Assembly (NCBI GenBank): GCA_903910385.1
Contig: CAIVZM010000050.1
Location: forward strand, 1 to 64,000
Source of the DNA: an uncultured Armatimonadota bacterium
Lineage (GTDB): Bacteria; Armatimonadota; Armatimonadia; Armatimonadales; Armatimonadaceae
Direction of reading: 5' to 3'
DNA length: 64,000 bases
A program made the position numbers and the translations under genes. The notes under the pieces were generated by a model. That model was not told where the DNA came from. It saw nothing but the letters and a program-made list of their open reading frames with translations, and did no database searches. Numbering within the stretch: the first letter of the stretch is position 1; each line of letters begins with the position of its first letter. This document shows positions 3,266 through 12,170 of this stretch, piece by piece.

Positions 3266-3919
3266 TTAGGGCTTATGTGACCCAATAGGATAGATATATC
3301 CTTTCTTTTCCGCATCCTGCCACGTCATTGGTTTCGGCTTGCGCCCCTTACTTCCTATTCCCATATTGCCAGGCCAACCGGGATAATTTGGATCGTCATC
3401 TACATCCCGATCCTCAATAGTAAACGGCCACTTACTTCGTGGGAAATACTTGGGTGCGATGAAGTGTCCTTCGTCATCAATGTCGGTGGTGATGGGAAGT
3501 AAATGAACCCACTTCCTAGGTATTGGAAGGGGAATGCAATCAACGTCAACTGCCCCATTACTTTTTGTATCGTTGTTCGATTCCCATCCCGGCGGTAATG
3601 GCACTTTTACCACATGACCATCGTTGTCGTCGAAAACGATGGGTACAAATTTTTTCGAGTTATTGACCACATGACCAGGTTTGTCGTGAGCATGGTCAGT
3701 CAACCCTTTCGGGTCCACGCCATTAACGGGATCGTTGTTGCAGTAGGCGTACCAGTTGTATCCGTCTTGGATCGGGTCACGGGAGAGGAAGCGTCCTACT
3801 GAGGCATCGTAGAAGCGATGCCCTAACCTCATGAGTCCGGTAACGGAATCGTTCTGGTAGCCATGCTGTCCGGCGAACCCGAACGGCGTAGGCGTCGTCC
3901 CCGTACTGGCGACGCTCAT
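3266..3919 (-). CDS. Orphan RHS C-terminal module with tip family A
   Basis: 217 residues read from an internal Met; recognisable RHS core continues upstream to about 3985 (TTRAITNSS...DAFGMS). Core residues 1-70 contain GLMRLGHRFYDASVGRFLSR and NDPVNGVDPKG, the pre-tip boundary of RHS/YD proteins. The tip (about 3266-3703) is unique here and starts after DPKG. It shares a pattern with the tips at 5685 and 9996: a PI(V/C)FD strand, a (V/I)x(V/I)xLPPGxE strand, a D(V/I)D segment and a DxPNYPGxPxNMGI element. In RHS systems this region is the cleaved toxin domain. No start or ribosome-binding site precedes the module, so it is probably silent unless recombined onto a complete core. The toxin activity is unknown. 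Confidence 0.72.
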   Translation of the reverse strand: MSVASTGTTPTPFGFAGQHGYQNDSVTGLMRLGHRFYDASVGRFLSRDPIQDGYNWYAYCNNDPVNGVDPKGLTDHAHDKPGHVVNNSKKFVPIVFDDNDGHVVKVPLPPGWESNNDTKSNGAVDVDCIPLPIPRKWVHLLPITTDIDDEGHFIAPKYFPRSKWPFTIEDRDVDDDPNYPGWPGNMGIGSKGRKPKPMTWQDAEKKGYIYPIGSHKP

Positions 3920-4041: not shown

Positions 4042-4515
4042 CTATTCTTGAGCTCCGTTTTGGAGAAGCAACGAGATGACTTCAGCGTTACCCGTTTCCT
4101 TTGCAAAAGATAACGGCGTTTCGCCATCAGCATTAGTTTCATTAACGTTCGCCCCACGGGAAAGGAGTAAATTCGCCGCCTCTAAGTTGCCATACGCGCA
4201 GGCGCTATGCAGAGCCGTTCCTTGATCCTCATGATGGTTGACCGAAGCTCCAAGGTCTATCAATAGTTTGATTGCGTCGATATCGTCTTCCGCTGCCGCA
4301 TTCATCAGGGCTGTCACTCCTTCGGCCGCCGTGTCCGGGTTAGCGCCCTGTTGGATCAGTAGTTTAGCGACGTCCAAATGCCCCTCCTGAATCGCCCAAA
4401 ATAGCAGTGGAAAGCCCTCCTCGTCATAAAAATCCGAGATGGCGAAACTACCAATCACGGCTCGCACACCCTCCGTTTCACCGCGTTTTACAAGGTTTAC
4501 AAAATCCGTTTTCAT
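4042..4515 (-). CDS. Ankyrin-repeat protein, putative immunity partner of the tip at 4613
   Basis: 157 residues forming about four ankyrin repeats: FPLLFWAIQEGHLDVAKLLI, then GVTALMNAAAEDDIDAIKLL, then GTALHSACAYGNLEAANLLL, then GETPLSFAKETGNAEVISLL. There is no signal peptide, so it should be cytosolic and act by binding a protein. An AGGA element 6 nt upstream of the ATG supports this start and independent translation. Its place directly after the RHS tip at 4613 and behind a hairpin argues for immunity. Ankyrin proteins are known among polymorphic-toxin immunity proteins, but sequence alone cannot prove this role. Confidence 0.75.
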   Translation of the reverse strand: MKTDFVNLVKRGETEGVRAVIGSFAISDFYDEEGFPLLFWAIQEGHLDVAKLLIQQGANPDTAAEGVTALMNAAAEDDIDAIKLLIDLGASVNHHEDQGTALHSACAYGNLEAANLLLSRGANVNETNADGETPLSFAKETGNAEVISLLLQNGAQE

Positions 4516-4612: not shown

Positions 4613-5140
4613 TTACATTCTACTTTTGGGGAAGTAGTAATGCCAGTGACCAAAGACTGGATGTCGTTTCTTATCGTTACCCGGATTATTTGGATCGCCA
4701 GGATGATAGTGCGGACCATGGCCATCGTTATGGTCTTCGGGACCGACTGGCTCAACGCCGCCTTTCCTTCTCGCCTCCTCCTCAGCCTCTTTCCTAGTGT
4801 TCTTACGTATTCGTGGGGCCGCCGGGCCATTTCGTACCTGGGAGTCGTCGTTATCGCGCTTTGCCAAGTTGGGTTGATTGAAGTAATCAATGGCATGCCC
4901 TATGCCAATGATGATGCCGCCAATACCGATGACGATGATTACCGGAATGGCAATTTCCGGAAAAGCGATCGCCCCCGCCGCCAACACCCACGCCATCAAT
5001 CCCTCCGGGTCCACGCCATTAACGGGATCATTGTTGCAGTAGGCGTACCAGTTGTATCCGTCCTGAATGGGATCACGTGAGAGGAACCTGCCCACGCTGG
5101 CATCATAGTAGCGATGCCCTAATCGCATCAAACCCGTCAC
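4613..5140 (-). CDS. Orphan RHS C-terminal module, His-rich tip with membrane-like segment
   Basis: 175 residues from an internal Met. Core: GLMRLGHRYYDASVGRFLSR to NDPVNGVDPEG. The tip (about 4613-5000) starts with a very hydrophobic stretch (AWVLAAGAIAFPEIAIPVII continuing through a Gly/Ile run) that could cross or insert into a membrane. A charged linker follows (RKNTRKEAEEEARRKGG), then a His/Pro-rich end (DHNDGHGPHYHPGD, then FGHWHYYFPKSRM). The clustered histidines suggest a metal-dependent nuclease or hydrolase, but no named motif is certain. The upstream end is damaged: RHS core DNA is joined out of frame at about 5165-5175 by a deletion, so this module cannot be translated from core sequence as it stands. 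Confidence 0.65.
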   Translation of the reverse strand: MTGLMRLGHRYYDASVGRFLSRDPIQDGYNWYAYCNNDPVNGVDPEGLMAWVLAAGAIAFPEIAIPVIIVIGIGGIIIGIGHAIDYFNQPNLAKRDNDDSQVRNGPAAPRIRKNTRKEAEEEARRKGGVEPVGPEDHNDGHGPHYHPGDPNNPGNDKKRHPVFGHWHYYFPKSRM

Positions 5141-5684: not shown

Positions 5685-6530
5685 TTATTTTTTCGGAATT
5701 TTTCTGATCCAGTGTTTGATGTGTTCGGCCTTATCTGGAGTCACTTTGTAGTGTGGGAGCCAGGGAACGCCCATGTTGTCGGGATAATCAGGGGCATTAG
5801 GGGCATTAGGGCTATTGCCCCAGGTATCCCCGCTGACAGATACGTGCTTCGATCCATAGGGCGTTATGTCACCGATTACGTTTCTGTCCCACGGAAAGAG
5901 TGGCCCCATGATGTGACGCCATATATTGGGACCGGTCTTTACGAAATCTATGTCAAGGAGGTCAGGATTCGTCTCATAACCGGGAGGTAAGTCGATCCTG
6001 ATTACTATCGTGCGCGTCGGATCGTTGGAGCTGGGATCATCGACGTCGAACACAATAGGGATTACTCTGTCCGTTAGGTTCCGAACTCCGACGTGCTTTT
6101 TCGGTTTCTGCCCTTCCGGGTCAACGCTGTTTACGGGATCATTCCCTACGTAAGCGTACCAGTTGTATCCGTCTCGAATGGGATCACGGGAGAGGAACCG
6201 TCCCACCGAGGCGTCATAGAAGCGATGCCCTAACCTCATGAGTCCGGTCACGGAATCGTTCTGGTAGCCATGTTGCCCCACAAAGCCAAAGGGCGTCGGC
6301 GTGCTGCCCGTGCTGGCGACATTCATCCCAAAGGCGTCCGTGTCGAGGCTATCGGTCTTGGTCTGGCTGCTGTTGGTTATCGCCCGTGTCGTGCCAAGCG
6401 CGTCCGCGTGGTAATACTTGCTCGTTCCGCCCCTCGTCTCCCCTATCAGCCCGCCCGCCCCTTGCATGTAGGAGGCCGAATCGCCCGACGGCTGGTCGCC
6501 AATGGGTCGCCGATCTTGCTGGCCTTTCAA
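5685..6530 (-). CDS. Orphan RHS C-terminal module with tip family A
   Basis: 281 residues if read from TTG 6530; RHS homology begins only at about residue 19 (ASYMQGAGG), so the first residues are junction sequence. The core then runs through GETRGGTSKYYHADALGTTR, DAFGMNVASTG, RLGHRFYDASVGRFLSRDPI and NDPVNSVDPEG. The tip (about 5685-6113) has VIPIVFDVDD, then TIVIRIDLPPGYETNP, LDIDFVKTGPNIWRHI and PDYPDNMGV, the same framework as the tips at 3266 and 9996. It lacks a start with a ribosome-binding site and is probably silent. It is followed by a hairpin and the membrane protein at 5201. Confidence 0.72.
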   Translation of the reverse strand: MKGQQDRRPIGDQPSGDSASYMQGAGGLIGETRGGTSKYYHADALGTTRAITNSSQTKTDSLDTDAFGMNVASTGSTPTPFGFVGQHGYQNDSVTGLMRLGHRFYDASVGRFLSRDPIRDGYNWYAYVGNDPVNSVDPEGQKPKKHVGVRNLTDRVIPIVFDVDDPSSNDPTRTIVIRIDLPPGYETNPDLLDIDFVKTGPNIWRHIMGPLFPWDRNVIGDITPYGSKHVSVSGDTWGNSPNAPNAPDYPDNMGVPWLPHYKVTPDKAEHIKHWIRKIPKK

Positions 6531-6578: not shown

Positions 6579-7043
6579 TTAGTGCATTGTGAGGCTGTCA
6601 ATAAGAGCCTGTGCTTTCGAACTTACTTTTACGGTCACACCTGCCTCAATGTGATTCCATCTACCGTTGAAAAAATACCTTTTCCTAGGCTTTTCCTCAA
6701 CTAAAAGAACTATCGTATTATTACGAATAAATATAATCCCAGAAGCCCAATTCCCATGGATAAAATTCGTCTCTGTGAAATGTTGAGCATAGTCACATTG
6801 TACGCGTTCGTTACCAACGTATACTTCATTGATTGCGATTTCAGCGCTATCGATAAAAGGAGCCAGTACATGACCAGATTCATATGAGTCTATGTCCATA
6901 CTCATGTTTGTGTCATTGAATATTTTAATAACCAAAAGAGCTGTAGTTATTGCACACAAAATTGCAATGTGTAATGCAAACCGAAGAATTTTGTTGTTTC
7001 GTGACGTAATTGCAAATGTGCGACGATTTTGAGTTGTATTCAT
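6579..7043 (-). CDS. Single-pass membrane protein, putative immunity partner of the tip at 7170
   Basis: 154 residues. A basic N-terminus (NRRTFAITSRNNKILR) precedes one membrane segment (about 24-44, LHIAILCAITTALLVIKIF) and a soluble, probably extracytoplasmic domain of about 110 residues. The gene is AT-rich compared with the RHS core on both sides. No family is recognised. It stands behind the hairpin that closes the tip cassette at 7170, the usual place of an immunity gene in this array. The start lacks a clear ribosome-binding site. Confidence 0.5.
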   Translation of the reverse strand: MNTTQNRRTFAITSRNNKILRFALHIAILCAITTALLVIKIFNDTNMSMDIDSYESGHVLAPFIDSAEIAINEVYVGNERVQCDYAQHFTETNFIHGNWASGIIFIRNNTIVLLVEEKPRKRYFFNGRWNHIEAGVTVKVSSKAQALIDSLTMH

Positions 7044-7169: not shown

Positions 7170-7940
7170 TCACTTGTCGACTATCCACTTATATTTCTCC
7201 GCCTCTTTAAGGCTTCGCCGTGGCCACTTCTCCGGATCGGTCGGTACGACGAGGAAACCATCAACGACTGAATCGTGGACGTGGTACTCAAACTCCCACG
7301 AATGGATAGGATCTCTTACATGAAAGTATGCATCCCTATCTTTCCCCTTGATAAAGACCCCTTCGCCATCCAGAATAGGATTCGTCTTTTTACCGGGTGG
7401 TAAAGGGATAACAATCCAGATAGACTTTCCATCTGGTTTAGGAATTTGGACGACGACATCGACTGTATTCTTTCCATCGTTGATGATAACCCCATTGACC
7501 CCCTCTGGATCAACCTTATTAACGGGATCATTGTTGACGTAAGCGTACCAGTTGTATCCGTCCTGGATGGGATCACGGGAGAGGAACCTGCCGACACTCG
7601 CATCGTAGAAGCGATGCCCTAATCGCATCAGCCCCGTAACGGAATCGTTCTGGTAACCATGCTGCCCCGCAAACCCAAAGGGCGTGGGCGTGGTTCCCGT
7701 GACAGCCACGTTCATTCCAAAGGCGTCGGTGTCCAGGCTGTCGGTCTTGGTCTGACTGCTGTTGGTTATCGCCCGTGTGGTTCCCAGAGCGTCTGCGTGA
7801 TAATACTTGCTTGTCCCGCCTCGCGTTTCCCCAATCAGTCCTCCGGCTCCCTGCATGTAGGAGGCCGCGCCGTCACTCAGCACATCGGAGTCAATGGCGT
7901 CATCGGTCAGCGTGAAGGTAAAGGTATTGGCGCCCTCCAC
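7170..7940 (-). CDS. Orphan RHS C-terminal module, tip distantly like family A
   Basis: 256 residues from an internal Met; core homology reaches upstream to about 7965 (GLGQRTKKV). It contains DDAIDSDVLSDGAASYMQGA, GETRGGTSKYYHADALGTTR, the VGRFLSRDPIQDGYNWYAYV block and NDPVNKVDPEG. The tip (about 7170-7499) has NTVDVVVQIPKPDG, IWIVIPLPPGKKTNP, then an aspartate/histidine-rich middle (YFHVRDPIHSWEFEYHVHDS) and a C-terminal LKEAEKYKWIVDK. The LPPGxxTNP strand and the final helix recall the tips at 3266, 5685 and 9996, but the NYPGxPxNMG element is missing. No start signal is present, so expression is doubtful. Confidence 0.7.
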   Translation of the reverse strand: MEGANTFTFTLTDDAIDSDVLSDGAASYMQGAGGLIGETRGGTSKYYHADALGTTRAITNSSQTKTDSLDTDAFGMNVAVTGTTPTPFGFAGQHGYQNDSVTGLMRLGHRFYDASVGRFLSRDPIQDGYNWYAYVNNDPVNKVDPEGVNGVIINDGKNTVDVVVQIPKPDGKSIWIVIPLPPGKKTNPILDGEGVFIKGKDRDAYFHVRDPIHSWEFEYHVHDSVVDGFLVVPTDPEKWPRRSLKEAEKYKWIVDK

Positions 7941-7966: not shown

Positions 7967-8302
7967 TTATTTGATTTCTATTACATAAATTTCGTCATTC
8001 TCGGTACTTTTTTTCGTATCTTGCTTCTTCAATTTTTTCCTTTGAATGACATGGCCGTCCGCAGTTGTCACTTTTACATCATTGCTGATTCCCAATCCCA
8101 TATATTCCCCCTTGTTTATATACACACTGTGAGGAGCAAGTTGATGAACTAGTTCATATCCATCTAAATCTACATTTACAGCACGATCCATGAAATTAAT
8201 GACAATGACGGAATTGACTTGAGAACAGCCGCTCTGTAGCGCTAATAATAGTGCACAGATCGGGAGGAGTACGTACTTAAAGTATTTATTGGTAACCTTC
8301 AT
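7967..8302 (-). CDS. Small lipoprotein, putative immunity partner of the metallopeptidase-like tip
   Basis: 111 residues. The N-terminus is a type II signal peptide: basic start, hydrophobic KYVLLPICALLLALQSGC, with the lipobox LQSGC giving the lipid-modified Cys near residue 27. The mature part is short, with a beta-rich look (VNVDLDGYELVHQLAPHS) and a lysine-rich tail. An AGGA element 8-10 nt upstream supports the start. A lipoprotein immunity protein would act on the outer face of a membrane, fitting a toxin that works there. Its stop lies almost at the junction with the next RHS core fragment. Confidence 0.65.
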   Translation of the reverse strand: MKVTNKYFKYVLLPICALLLALQSGCSQVNSVIVINFMDRAVNVDLDGYELVHQLAPHSVYINKGEYMGLGISNDVKVTTADGHVIQRKKLKKQDTKKSTENDEIYVIEIK

Positions 8303-8320
8303 CGGGAGATCCTGATTTCC

Positions 8321-8348
8321 CTGGGGAGAGGTTTTGCCCTCTCCCCAG
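8321..8348 (-). terminator. Hairpin after RHS tip cassette (8392)
   Basis: 11-bp perfect inverted repeat (8321-8331 with 8338-8348, loop of 6 nt) between the tip stop and the lipoprotein gene. Confidence 0.6.
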
Positions 8349-8391
8349 AATATTCACTCAATCGTCGTTGGAGCGCGGTCTTTCTCTACAT

Positions 8392-9156
8392 TTAGCGAGA
8401 AATGCCTGCATGGTCGTCCGCATCCCGCTCTAAGGGAGCGAGGTCATGACCCACCGTAATGTATTCCTTGATAATCTCTATCAAGAACCAGGGTTCACCC
8501 ATTTCCCATTCCTGATGGACATGCCAGTGTTCATGTGCACGCCATTTTGGACTCTTCCTATAGAGATCCCAATCGTCCTCGTCATGTATATAGGTTACCC
8601 CCCCGTAAGTCATTGCATTCCCATGGTGGTTGAGCGGATTTCCCCCAATGATGACAGGATACCCTTCTTGATCAGTAACGTGCCGCGATGGCGGTGGCGT
8701 TTTGGGTATGATAAGGCCCGTCGGATCAATCTTGTTAACGGGATCGTTGTTGCAGTAAGCATACCAGTTATCGCCATCCTGAATCGGGTCACGGGAAAGG
8801 AACCTTCCGACGCTGGCATCGTAGAATCGGTGTCCTAACCGCATCAGTCCGGTCACGGAATCGTTCTGGTAGCCGTGCTGCCCCGCAAAGCCAAAGGGCG
8901 TGGGCGTACTGCCCGTGCTGGCGATGTTCATTCCAAAGGCGTCCGTGTCGAGGCTGTCCGTTTTGGTCTGAGTGCTGTTGGTTATCGCCCGCGTCGTGCC
9001 TAAGGCGTCCGCGTGGTAGTACTTGCTGGTTCCTCCCCTCGTCTCGCCAATCAGTCCGCCCGCTCCCTGCATATACGAGGCGGCACCGTCACTGAGTACG
9101 TCGCTATCAATGGCGTCGTCGTTGAGCGTGAAAGTGAAGGTATTGCTTCCCTCCAA
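8392..9156 (-). CDS. Orphan RHS C-terminal module with HExxH metallopeptidase-like tip
   Basis: 254 residues from an internal Met; core homology extends upstream to about 9262 (KTVSVGGTTTQTNTYNGIGQ). After NDPVNKIDPTG the tip (about 8392-8716) contains RAHEHWHVHQEW, a zinc-binding HExxH (about residues 208-212) followed by xxQ. The C-terminus is LERDADDHAGISR. An HExxH-xxQ helix plus a downstream ExDAD acidic motif is the arrangement of the DUF4157/eCIS-type metallopeptidase domains often found in polymorphic toxins. The tip is short (about 108 residues), so the assignment is by motif only. The partner gene at 7967 encodes a lipoprotein. No start codon with a ribosome-binding site is visible. 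Confidence 0.7.
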   Translation of the reverse strand: MEGSNTFTFTLNDDAIDSDVLSDGAASYMQGAGGLIGETRGGTSKYYHADALGTTRAITNSTQTKTDSLDTDAFGMNIASTGSTPTPFGFAGQHGYQNDSVTGLMRLGHRFYDASVGRFLSRDPIQDGDNWYAYCNNDPVNKIDPTGLIIPKTPPPSRHVTDQEGYPVIIGGNPLNHHGNAMTYGGVTYIHDEDDWDLYRKSPKWRAHEHWHVHQEWEMGEPWFLIEIIKEYITVGHDLAPLERDADDHAGISR

Positions 9157-9429
9157 TTTCTTGGTTCTCTGCCCGATACCGTTGTAGGTGTTGGTCTGGG
9201 TCGTTGTCCCGCCTACCGAGACCGTCTTTAACCGCTCCTCGGCGTCCCAGGTCAGCGCGGGTACCTCCTTTGATGCGTCTGGTGTAGGCGACTTGAGACA
9301 GCCAACAATTCGGCAACAGGATCAAAATTACAGTCACCTCTACAATCCCTCATGCCGCGCGATCCAGCATCCACTGGTAACAATGTTCCGATTCAGTCGG
9401 CGTCGTCGCGGAACCCGCAAGTTAATTAC

Positions 9430-9995: not shown

Positions 9996-12170
9996 CTATT
10001 TGACGGGACGGACTATGTGTTTTTTGATAGCCTCGTCAATTGTCATGTCTTTGGGCGGTCTTTGAGTCTTGCCATTCCCGATACCCATGTTAGACGGGAA
10101 GCCGGGATAGTTCGGGTCATCCGGGACAGTGCCCGGATACCAGTGACCATGTACTTGCCCATCACGGACGTACAGAGTCCCATCAATGGAAGGTGTTATA
10201 TGAATCCATCGATTGGGGCCGATTTTCACGAAATCCACATCCACTACCAGAGGGTCGGTCTCGTATCCTTTCGGAAGTTTGATCCGAACCACTTTCCCCT
10301 GAAAATCGAAGCAGATAGGTATAGATGGATCATTCTGATTGCACACCTGCCCCGCTCCGAATCCCCAGAACCATCCTCCCTTTTCTGTCAACCCCTCCGG
10401 ATCCACGGCATTTACGGGATCATTCCCTACGTAAGCGTACCAGTTGTATCCATCCTGTATCGGGTCACGGGAGAGGAAGCGTCCTACACTGGCGTCGTAG
10501 TAGCGATGCCCTAATCGCATCAGCCCGGTGACGGAATCGTTCTGGTAGCCGTGCTGCCCGGCGAACCCGAAGGGCGTCGGCGTGGTTCCCGTCACCGCAA
10601 CGCTCATCCCAAAGGCGTCGGTGTCGAGGCTGTCCGTCTTGGTCTGACTGCTGTTGGTTATCGCCCGCGTCGAGCCTAAAGCATCGGCATGGTAGTACTT
10701 GCTGGTTCCTCCTCGCGTCTCGCCAATCAGTCCGCCCGCTCCTTGCATGTACGAGGCCGCCCCGTCACTGAGGACATCGCTATCAATGGCGTCATCGGTC
10801 AGCGTGAAAGTGAAAGTATTGGCGCCCTCTACCTTCTTTACCCGCTGCCCCAGCCCGTTGTAAGTGTTGGTCTGCGTGGTCGTGCCGCCTACCGAAACGG
10901 TCTTTAACCGCTCCTCCGCGTCCCAGGTCAGCGAAGTCGTCACCCCGCCGCTGGTTACGCTTGTCACATTGCCCGCATTGTCATATCCATAGGTCTTGGA
11001 ACTGGTAGAGGACAGCTTCTCGGCGTTGTCATACGTGTAAGTGTCGGTCGTCCCTCCCTGCACCTTCGTGGCGCGGTTGCCCGCGTTGTCGTAGGTGTAC
11101 GAGATGCTGTACGCCGTCGTCCCGGTCCTCACCTCACTGGTGAGTTGCCCGGCGTTGTCATACCCGTAGGTAATCACATCCCCATTGGTGACCGTCTCGG
11201 TCAAACGCCTGCCATCTCCCTTGTAGGTGTACGAGTGGCTGTCCAAAGTCACCGCCCCGCTCGTTTTCGTCACAGCCGAGGACAGATCCGCTTCAGTCGA
11301 ACTGTAGGCTTTGGTCTGCACCGAGCCATTGGGATACGTAGTCGTCAGCGTTCGTCCGGCGTTGTCATACGCGTAGGACGTGGTCAGGCTGCCGGGGTCG
11401 GTCTGACTGGTGAGCCGGTCCGCGTTGTCGTAGGAAAACGTCGTCACCGAGGTTCCGGCGACGGTGCGTGTAGTCAATCGGTTCGCGGCGTCATACGAGT
11501 AGGTGACGGAGGACGCCCCGGAGGGAGCCGAGCGCGTGGTCAATCGGCTCGCATCATCGTAGGCGTAGGAAGTGGTCCCGGTGCCGTCGGTCATGCTGAT
11601 CTTGCGGTCATCGTTGTCATAAGCAAGCGTCACCGAGGATGTACTGTCGCTGTAGGTCTTTCCCGTTAATCTCCCCGCATCGTCATAAGCGTGGGTGATG
11701 GTCACCGCCCGCCCATCGGTCTTGACGCTCAGTTCCCCGGTCGCAAGGTAGGTGTAGGCATCGCTGGTGCTGTCCGGGTAGGAGATCGAGGACAGTTGGT
11801 TTCGCACCGTGTAGCCGTAGCTGGTGATCTTGCCCCTGCCGTCGGTGAAGGACGTTTTGTTGTCGGCGTTGTCATAGCCAAAGGAGACCACCCGGCTGTT
11901 GGGGTCGGTATGGCTGGTCAGGCGGTTGGCGTCGTCATAGACATACGAGTTCACCTTCGAGAGCGGGTCTGTGACGCTCAGCTTGTTGCCGTTGGCGTCG
12001 TAGGCGAACGAGGTCACCCGACTTCCCGGCGCGGTCACGCTACTCACCCGGCCCCAGTTGTCATAGGCGTAGGAAGTGGCCCGGCTGGTGGCGTCCGTGA
12101 CCGAGGTGACCCTCCCCAATGTGTCGTACGCGGTGGAGGTCGCATGGCTCAGGGGGTCCGTGACCTCCAA
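9996..12170 (-). CDS. 5'-truncated RHS/YD-repeat protein with tip family A
   Basis: 724 residues with no N-terminal targeting region; the first Met lies inside a YD repeat (DPLSHATSTAYDTLGRVTSV). Some twenty YD repeats (pattern YDxxGRxTSxTD) run to about residue 490, then the closing core block (SYMQGAGGLIGETRGGTSK, RLGHRYYDASVGRFLSRDPI) and NDPVNAVDPEG. The tip (about 9996-10390) has IPICFDFQGKVVRIKLPKGY, VDVDFVKIGPNRWIHI and DPNYPGFPSNMGIG, the clearest family A example along with the tip at 5685. RHS cores form a hollow shell that encloses the tip. The fragment keeps far more core than the other orphans and is probably the most recently displaced. Its upstream edge abuts the TPR gene at 12178. 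Confidence 0.8.
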   Translation of the reverse strand: MEVTDPLSHATSTAYDTLGRVTSVTDATSRATSYAYDNWGRVSSVTAPGSRVTSFAYDANGNKLSVTDPLSKVNSYVYDDANRLTSHTDPNSRVVSFGYDNADNKTSFTDGRGKITSYGYTVRNQLSSISYPDSTSDAYTYLATGELSVKTDGRAVTITHAYDDAGRLTGKTYSDSTSSVTLAYDNDDRKISMTDGTGTTSYAYDDASRLTTRSAPSGASSVTYSYDAANRLTTRTVAGTSVTTFSYDNADRLTSQTDPGSLTTSYAYDNAGRTLTTTYPNGSVQTKAYSSTEADLSSAVTKTSGAVTLDSHSYTYKGDGRRLTETVTNGDVITYGYDNAGQLTSEVRTGTTAYSISYTYDNAGNRATKVQGGTTDTYTYDNAEKLSSTSSKTYGYDNAGNVTSVTSGGVTTSLTWDAEERLKTVSVGGTTTQTNTYNGLGQRVKKVEGANTFTFTLTDDAIDSDVLSDGAASYMQGAGGLIGETRGGTSKYYHADALGSTRAITNSSQTKTDSLDTDAFGMSVAVTGTTPTPFGFAGQHGYQNDSVTGLMRLGHRYYDASVGRFLSRDPIQDGYNWYAYVGNDPVNAVDPEGLTEKGGWFWGFGAGQVCNQNDPSIPICFDFQGKVVRIKLPKGYETDPLVVDVDFVKIGPNRWIHITPSIDGTLYVRDGQVHGHWYPGTVPDDPNYPGFPSNMGIGNGKTQRPPKDMTIDEAIKKHIVRPVK

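What the first reader, a model, noticed from the sequence alone, without database searches (positions are those of the whole stretch)
7967..8716. HExxH metallopeptidase-like tip paired with a lipoprotein
The tip at 8392 has HEHWHVHQ (zinc helix) and a C-terminal LERDAD motif, an arrangement like DUF4157-type peptidases in polymorphic toxins. The next gene encodes a lipoprotein with LQSGC. A lipoprotein as immunity protein makes sense if the toxin acts in the periplasm or on the cell surface of the target.
Basis: partly seen in the sequence, partly recalled or inferred. Interest (0 to 1): 0.65.

Follow-up and report, generated by a model that had tools for sequence, protein, structure and literature searches.

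The report
Peptidase toxin with lipoprotein antidote
A spare (unexpressed) toxin cassette in an Armatimonadota bacterium encodes a small predicted zinc protein-cutting enzyme next to a membrane-anchored lipoprotein that is probably its antidote; relatives of both genes sit side by side in other members of the phylum, so the pairing is real, but it is a new member of a kind of weapon already known from other bacteria.

Summary
On the minus strand an Rhs-core fragment (8713-9260) runs into a 108-aa tip (8395-8718) with HEHWHVHQ and a downstream LERDAD. It is followed 89 bp later by a 111-aa gene (7967-8302) with lipobox LQSGC. Tip relatives occur in ten other Armatimonadota genomes. Across 13 aligned tips, both zinc histidines, the HExxH glutamate and a second glutamate in the C-terminal ExxA motif are invariant. 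The predicted structure (pLDDT 91) has a zinc helix, with the second glutamate on a later helix, as in gluzincins. The tip itself misses Pfam's DUF4157 (eCIS_core) model. A close relative passes it, and the best structural matches include a phage DUF4157 protein. All ten examinable relatives in toxin-tip context are followed by a small lipoprotein or single-TM protein. A search with the lipoprotein alone recovers one of those genes. The genome has no detectable T6SS or contractile sheath. A full-length Rhs with a putative Sec signal lies on another contig, its core 84% identical in DNA to this cassette. Best reading: a silent orphan Rhs toxin-immunity cassette for an envelope-acting DUF4157-like metallopeptidase. 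It works like Tpe-Tpi (VgrG2b-PA0261) pairs but is not shown to belong to them. Toxicity, neutralisation and substrate are untested.

The parts
8713..9260 (-). 3' fragment of the Rhs core (orphan cassette), shared by the other cassettes of the array and by the full-length Rhs on contig C23
   Evidence: TIGR03696 E 3.8e-21; 82-90% DNA identity to other cassettes; 83.9% over 522 bp to the C23 main gene
8392..9156 (-). Open reading frame of the orphan Rhs tip (TTG to stop; frame open to 9321); no signal peptide and no full N-terminal region
8395..8718 (-). 108-aa C-terminal tip, predicted DUF4157-like zinc metallopeptidase toxin domain
   Evidence: relatives in 10 other genomes, alignment A1, AlphaFold2 model pLDDT 90.7
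8512..8535 (-). HEHWHVHQ, zinc-binding HExxHxxQ motif (tip residues 62-69)
   Evidence: sequence; H, E, H invariant in 13 sequences
8416..8433 (-). LERDAD, with E97 the presumed third zinc ligand (tip residues 96-101)
   Evidence: E97 and A100 invariant in 13 sequences; on helix 95-104
8321..8348 (.). Perfect inverted repeat CTGGGGAGAGG-(6)-CCTCTCCCCAG between the tip stop and the lipoprotein start; function unknown
   Evidence: fold energy z -2.5; single copy in the genome
7967..8302 (-). 111-aa lipoprotein, presumed cognate immunity protein
   Evidence: AlphaFold2 model mostly beta strands, pLDDT 73
8225..8239 (-). Lipobox LQSGC (lipidated Cys26, Ser at +2)
   Evidence: sequence

Best explanation
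This is an orphan Rhs toxin-immunity cassette. The tip is a small gluzincin-type zinc metallopeptidase, distantly related to DUF4157/eCIS_core, with ligands His62, His66 and Glu97 and catalytic base Glu63. When joined by recombination to a full-length Rhs gene with a Sec signal, such as the one on contig C23, it would be exported and displayed or released. It would then act in the envelope of neighbouring cells, probably cleaving envelope proteins. The lipoprotein, anchored in the producer's membrane with its beta-rich domain facing the periplasm, would bind and block it. Shown: gene layout, motif conservation, predicted zincin-like fold, conserved pairing, shared core DNA, and a full-length Rhs with a putative Sec signal in the same genome. 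Inferred: zinc binding, protease activity, toxicity, delivery route, recombinational activation and neutralisation.
For: HExxH and E97 are invariant in 13 sequences. The confident model has a zinc helix. Relative L006 passes the PF13699 cut-off (23.6 vs 22 bits, E 5.8e-5). The tip profile aligns in register with nine true eCIS_core domains (hhalign E 0.0054, probability 7). BFVD structural matches include a phage DUF4157 protein (prob 1.00, TMt 0.70, rmsd 1.7 over 70 columns) and a 'Vgr2b binding protein' (prob 0.96). Weak PDB matches are often gluzincins. All ten examinable relatives in toxin-tip context are followed by a lipoprotein or single-TM gene, several with 4-bp overlaps. The lipoprotein alone, searched in 291 genomes, finds besides itself only two marginal hits, one of them the gene behind tip relative L014. 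In a leave-one-out profile the window lipoprotein scores 20.8 bits; 0 of 200 shuffles reach it. The Rhs core is shared at 84% DNA identity with a signal-bearing 1250-aa Rhs. VipB and phage sheath are absent. Literature precedent: PMC6899460, PMC3482391, PMC3967940.
Against: The window tip has no Pfam, NCBIfam or PDB sequence hit and no structural match at E <= 0.001. The profile-profile probability is low. Three of the eleven immunity candidates (L011, L013, L016) do not clearly beat their shuffles. The immunity model is of moderate confidence and has no clear PDB match. The orphan cannot be exported as encoded. Five of the six other cassettes in the array also have membrane-type downstream genes, so the location is not specific to this toxin.
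Confidence: 0.8

Rival explanations
1. The cassette is a decaying relic: the tip is never expressed, and only the lipoprotein, if anything, is kept as protection against relatives that carry the active toxin.
For: The window copy is 5'-truncated. Relative L014 has a stop-interrupted tip but an intact downstream lipoprotein. L012's tip is cut short by a transposase-like coding sequence.
Against: The window tip has a full open frame with every invariant residue intact, so it has been under recent selection or was recently acquired. Orphan cassettes are known to be activated by recombination (PMC3967940).
Confidence: 0.2
2. The tip is an autoprocessing or releasing peptidase, like the N-terminal PVC-metallopeptidases, rather than the toxin itself.
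For: Most DUF4157/PVC-metallopeptidase domains are thought to be releasing peptidases (PMC3482391).
Against: The domain lies at the extreme C-terminus with no further toxin domain in the window and in most relatives, and it has its own paired downstream gene. PMC3482391 itself infers a toxin role for versions in this position.
Confidence: 0.07
3. The lipoprotein is not the immunity protein but an unrelated or accessory gene that travels with the cassette.
For: The immunity candidates are very divergent, and some do not score above shuffles. The gap in the window is 89 bp with a hairpin, unlike the overlapping genes in relatives.
Against: Position and anchor type are conserved in all ten examinable relatives in toxin-tip context, and there is profile homology between the window protein and those genes.
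Confidence: 0.07

Closest known systems
Tpe-Tpi effector-immunity pairs (VgrG2b C-terminal domain-PA0261, Tpe1-Tpi1; PMC6899460)
   Same: Small HExxH gluzincin at a C-terminus, with the third zinc ligand a Glu on a later helix; often annotated DUF4157; a small gene directly downstream whose product reaches the envelope as a lipoprotein, a TM protein or a periplasmic protein, much the range seen here
   Different: Delivered by T6SS; here no T6SS is detectable and the carrier is Rhs with a putative Sec signal. No detectable sequence relation to the PDB copy of any such domain. PA0261-family cysteines are partly conserved and it needs disulfide formation; the mature window lipoprotein has only its lipobox Cys
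DUF4157 / eCIS_core / PVC-metallopeptidase (PF13699)
   Same: HExxHxxQ...E signature, strands before the zinc helix, structural matches; a relative passes the Pfam cut-off
   Different: The window tip is below the model's threshold. It lacks the typical upstream part of the Pfam domain and has a longer C-terminal part with HDxAPxExxAD
Orphan Rhs toxin-immunity cassettes (Salmonella LT2 rhs orphan, PMC3967940)
   Same: Rhs-core fragment plus variable tip plus linked downstream gene, lacking start and export signals, able in principle to recombine into a full-length rhs gene
   Different: Here the known full-length gene lies on another contig and the core identity is only about 84%, so recombination is inferred, not shown
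Tox-MPTase1-5 of Rhs polymorphic toxins (PMC3482391)
   Same: HExxH metallopeptidase tips on Rhs proteins
   Different: Those are described as distantly Wss1-like and listed without immunity proteins; not compared directly here

Membership tests
Orphan Rhs toxin-immunity cassette | 3' fragment of an Rhs core followed by a variable tip after the DPxG boundary | tested here: met
   TIGR03696 E 3.8e-21 ending at DPTG; 24 core matches in the genome
Orphan Rhs toxin-immunity cassette | No own N-terminal region or export signal; homology to a full-length rhs gene | tested here: met
   Core homology ends near 9258; full-length Rhs with putative Sec signal at C23
Orphan Rhs toxin-immunity cassette | Linked downstream gene specific to the tip | tested here: met
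   Pair conserved in ten other loci; lipoprotein-only search lands on one of them
Orphan Rhs toxin-immunity cassette | Toxicity of the tip and neutralisation by the downstream product | not testable with these tools
   needs bench work
DUF4157 / eCIS_core (PF13699) | Match to the curated model above its cut-off | tested here: not met
   Window tip: no hit at E <= 1. Relative L006 passes (23.6 bits), L015 does not (14.4 bits)
DUF4157 / eCIS_core (PF13699) | HExxHxxQ ... E zincin signature on the right helices | tested here: met
   signature as defined in PMC3482391
DUF4157 / eCIS_core (PF13699) | Profile or fold similarity | tested here: inconclusive
   hhalign E 0.0054 but probability 7; Foldseek prob 0.95-1.00 but E 0.004-0.2
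Tpe-Tpi pairs | Gluzincin with envelope-located immunity protein encoded directly downstream | tested here: met
   Predicted only
Tpe-Tpi pairs | T6SS delivery | tested here: not met
   No VipB and no phage sheath in the genome, which is 95% complete
Tpe-Tpi pairs | Sequence homology to VgrG2b C-terminal domain or PA0261 | tested here: inconclusive
   Tip profile against all PDB chains gave no such match; the proteins themselves were not fetched and PA0261 was not compared

The most novel reading that the evidence does not exclude
A Sec-exported, T6SS-independent Rhs system in Armatimonadota delivers a DUF4157-like peptidase that attacks envelope lipoproteins, and the lipoprotein immunity protein acts as a membrane-tethered decoy or pseudo-substrate. 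VgrG2b has been reported to lower membrane-bound lipoproteins (PMC6899460), which makes this thinkable, but nothing here tests it.
Probability: 0.12. Interest if true: 0.65.

Novelty: new member of a known kind. Interest (0 to 1): 0.4.

Why it matters
It extends metallopeptidase effector-immunity pairs with envelope-anchored immunity proteins to a poorly studied phylum and to a genome with no detectable T6SS or contractile sheath, and gives a defined two-gene pair whose function can be tested directly. A search of the held papers for Armatimonad*, Rhs and toxin found only one paper, none about such pairs as far as its abstract shows. If the immunity lipoprotein proves to be a substrate mimic, it could help identify what this peptidase class cuts, which was left open for VgrG2b (PMC6899460).

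Tried and rejected
Plasmid and viral-contig searches with the tip: no relatives. Single-sequence and profile searches against PDB sequences: nothing credible. Pfam, NCBIfam and PADLOC with the window proteins: nothing beyond the Rhs core. The alignment-based genome-contig scan failed with all 13 tips; with five closer tips it found four loci, all Armatimonadota records and apparently matching sequences already seen. A possible homology between the other tips of the array (3266, 5685, 7170, 9996) and the immunity family was tested by hhalign and rejected (probability 1.6). Resemblance of the neighbouring protein 6579-7043 to the lipoprotein (E 1.7e-4) was weak in the profile test (3.1 bits, 2 of 300 shuffles as good). 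Foldseek of the immunity model gave no interpretable match. Considered and set aside: that tip homology might reflect only the Rhs core. The search query began after the DPTG boundary, so it does not. In the first immunity alignment (A2) the L005 row had its N-terminus shortened and given an M by hand; it was redone with the unaltered sequence (A4), and the tests and the fold rest on that.

Full report
The observation. On the minus strand, an open frame (8392-9321, TTG at 9156) carries a fragment of the Rhs core and then a 108-residue tip (8395-8718) containing HEHWHVHQ and, some 30 residues further on, LERDAD. The core fragment matches TIGR03696 at E 3.8e-21 and ends at the DPTG boundary. After 89 bp, which include a perfect 11-bp inverted repeat found once in the genome, comes a 111-aa gene with signal sequence and lipobox LQSGC.

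Setting. The window lies on contig C50 of a 4.47-Mb, 84-contig genome with 24 Rhs-core matches. The relatives that carry names are Armatimonadota. The array at about 2.3-15.1 kb holds several cassettes, each an Rhs-core fragment plus tip plus small downstream gene. Their cores are 80-93% identical in DNA to a 1250-aa Rhs on contig C23. That protein has a plausible Sec signal (VATLTTVAMLWLSVSPAMA; judged by eye). The cassette studied here shares 83.9% over 522 bp with it. No T6SS VipB, no phage-type sheath and no eCIS_core protein was found in the genome, which is 95% complete. The cassette is therefore a 5'-truncated orphan without its own export signal. In Salmonella such orphans are activated by recombination with the main rhs gene (PMC3967940); here that step is inferred.

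Is the HExxH real? A search of 291 genomes of the phylum with the tip alone (no Rhs core) found 14 further places in ten other genomes. In a 13-sequence alignment H62, E63, H66, E97, A100, Y53, W59, G19 and G25 are invariant and P17 and H91 nearly so. AlphaFold2 on that alignment gives mean pLDDT 90.7, pTM 0.81: strands, then a helix 57-73 carrying HExxHxxQ, and E97 near the start of helix 95-104. This is the arrangement of gluzincins, with Glu as third ligand.

Is it DUF4157-like? The window tip has no Pfam hit. Relative L006 passes the curated PF13699 cut-off at 23.6 bits, E 5.8e-5, and L015 gives a sub-threshold 14.4 bits. That PF13699, now named eCIS_core, is the former DUF4157 is my own knowledge. 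The tip profile against nine true eCIS_core domains from the phylum aligns in register, from the A-x-T strand to HExxHxxQ, with E 0.0054 but probability only 7. Foldseek against BFVD gives probabilities 0.95-1.00 for its six top matches. One is a phage DUF4157 protein (TM-score 0.70 on the target, rmsd 1.7 over 70 columns) and one is named 'Vgr2b binding protein'; E-values are 0.004-0.2. PDB matches are weak but often gluzincins, such as DPPIII and ERAP1. PMC3482391 defines the PVC-metallopeptidase by HExxHxxQ-E and notes versions at the C-terminus of Rhs proteins as likely toxins. I read the tip as a divergent relative, not a formal member.

Is the lipoprotein its partner? In the ten relatives with a readable toxin-tip context (L005, L006, L007, L011, L013, L014, L015, L016, L017, L018) the next gene encodes a small protein with either a lipobox or one N-terminal TM segment, several starting within the last bases of the tip gene. 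L012 was not counted because its tip is cut short by a transposase-like coding sequence. Three stand-alone chromosomal relatives (L008-L010) had no such small gene among the downstream frames listed. Searched by itself, the window lipoprotein finds two marginal hits in 291 genomes besides itself. One (E 0.0099) is the gene directly behind tip relative L014. The window protein and the L005 partner align over their whole length (E 2e-5 for the single comparison, signal region included). In a leave-one-out profile test on the mature parts the window protein scores 20.8 bits against at most 7.6 for 200 shuffles; eight of eleven members beat at least 199 of 200 shuffles, while L011, L013 and L016 do not. 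The anchor and position are better conserved than the sequence, as is usual for immunity proteins. The predicted immunity domain is mostly beta and of moderate confidence, with no credible PDB match. A caution: five of the six other cassettes in the window also have membrane-type downstream genes, so envelope location may reflect the Sec-Rhs route in general.

How it would work. After joining a full-length Rhs, the peptidase tip would be exported, reach the envelope of a neighbour and cut a protein there. The producer would be protected by the membrane-tethered lipoprotein, probably sorted to the outer membrane given Ser at +2 (a rule from E. coli, applied by inference). The closest described parallel is the Tpe-Tpi group: VgrG2b C-terminal domain and PA0261. 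There the toxin is active only in the periplasm, its HExxH is needed, and immunity proteins are lipoproteins, TM proteins or periplasmic depending on species (PMC6899460). The range seen here, lipoprotein or TM anchor, is strikingly similar. Membership is not claimed: there is no T6SS, no detectable sequence link in the PDB search, and no cysteines beyond the lipobox in the mature lipoprotein.

Verdict. It is a new, divergent member of a known kind of toxin-immunity pair, in a phylum where I found no published account of such pairs among the held papers.

Noticed in passing
window 3266-3919, 5685-6530, 7170-7940, 9996-12170 (minus strand, C-terminal tips): Four other tips of the array are related to each other (best pair E 3e-20) and share an LPxGxxxN-like motif, no Pfam family; an undescribed tip family with different membrane-type downstream genes.
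   Followed up: partly
window 8321-8348: Perfect 11-bp inverted repeat with 6-base loop between the tip stop and the lipoprotein start, single copy in the genome; could be an attenuator or terminator-like element.
   Followed up: partly
window 6579-7043(-): Single-TM protein behind the next cassette (tip 7170) resembles the lipoprotein just after the anchor (E 1.7e-4), but profile support is weak.
   Followed up: partly
window 4042-4515(-): Ankyrin-repeat-like protein behind tip 4613-5140, the only downstream gene of the array without a predicted membrane segment.
   Followed up: no
L072:2037-5789 (G000:C23): Full-length 1250-aa Rhs with a putative Sec signal, followed by further orphan-like cassettes on the same strand.
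   Followed up: partly
L012 and L014: Degraded relatives: in L012 the tip frame runs into a transposase-like coding sequence; in L014 the tip is interrupted by a stop while the downstream lipoprotein gene is intact.
   Followed up: no
L008, L009, L010; L030:1252-1668: Stand-alone relatives without Rhs context (HEHHHVWQ), and a more distant protein with HERVHVRQ and NPFEREA, none with a Pfam or NCBIfam hit where tested; possible cellular branch of the same peptidase family.
   Followed up: partly
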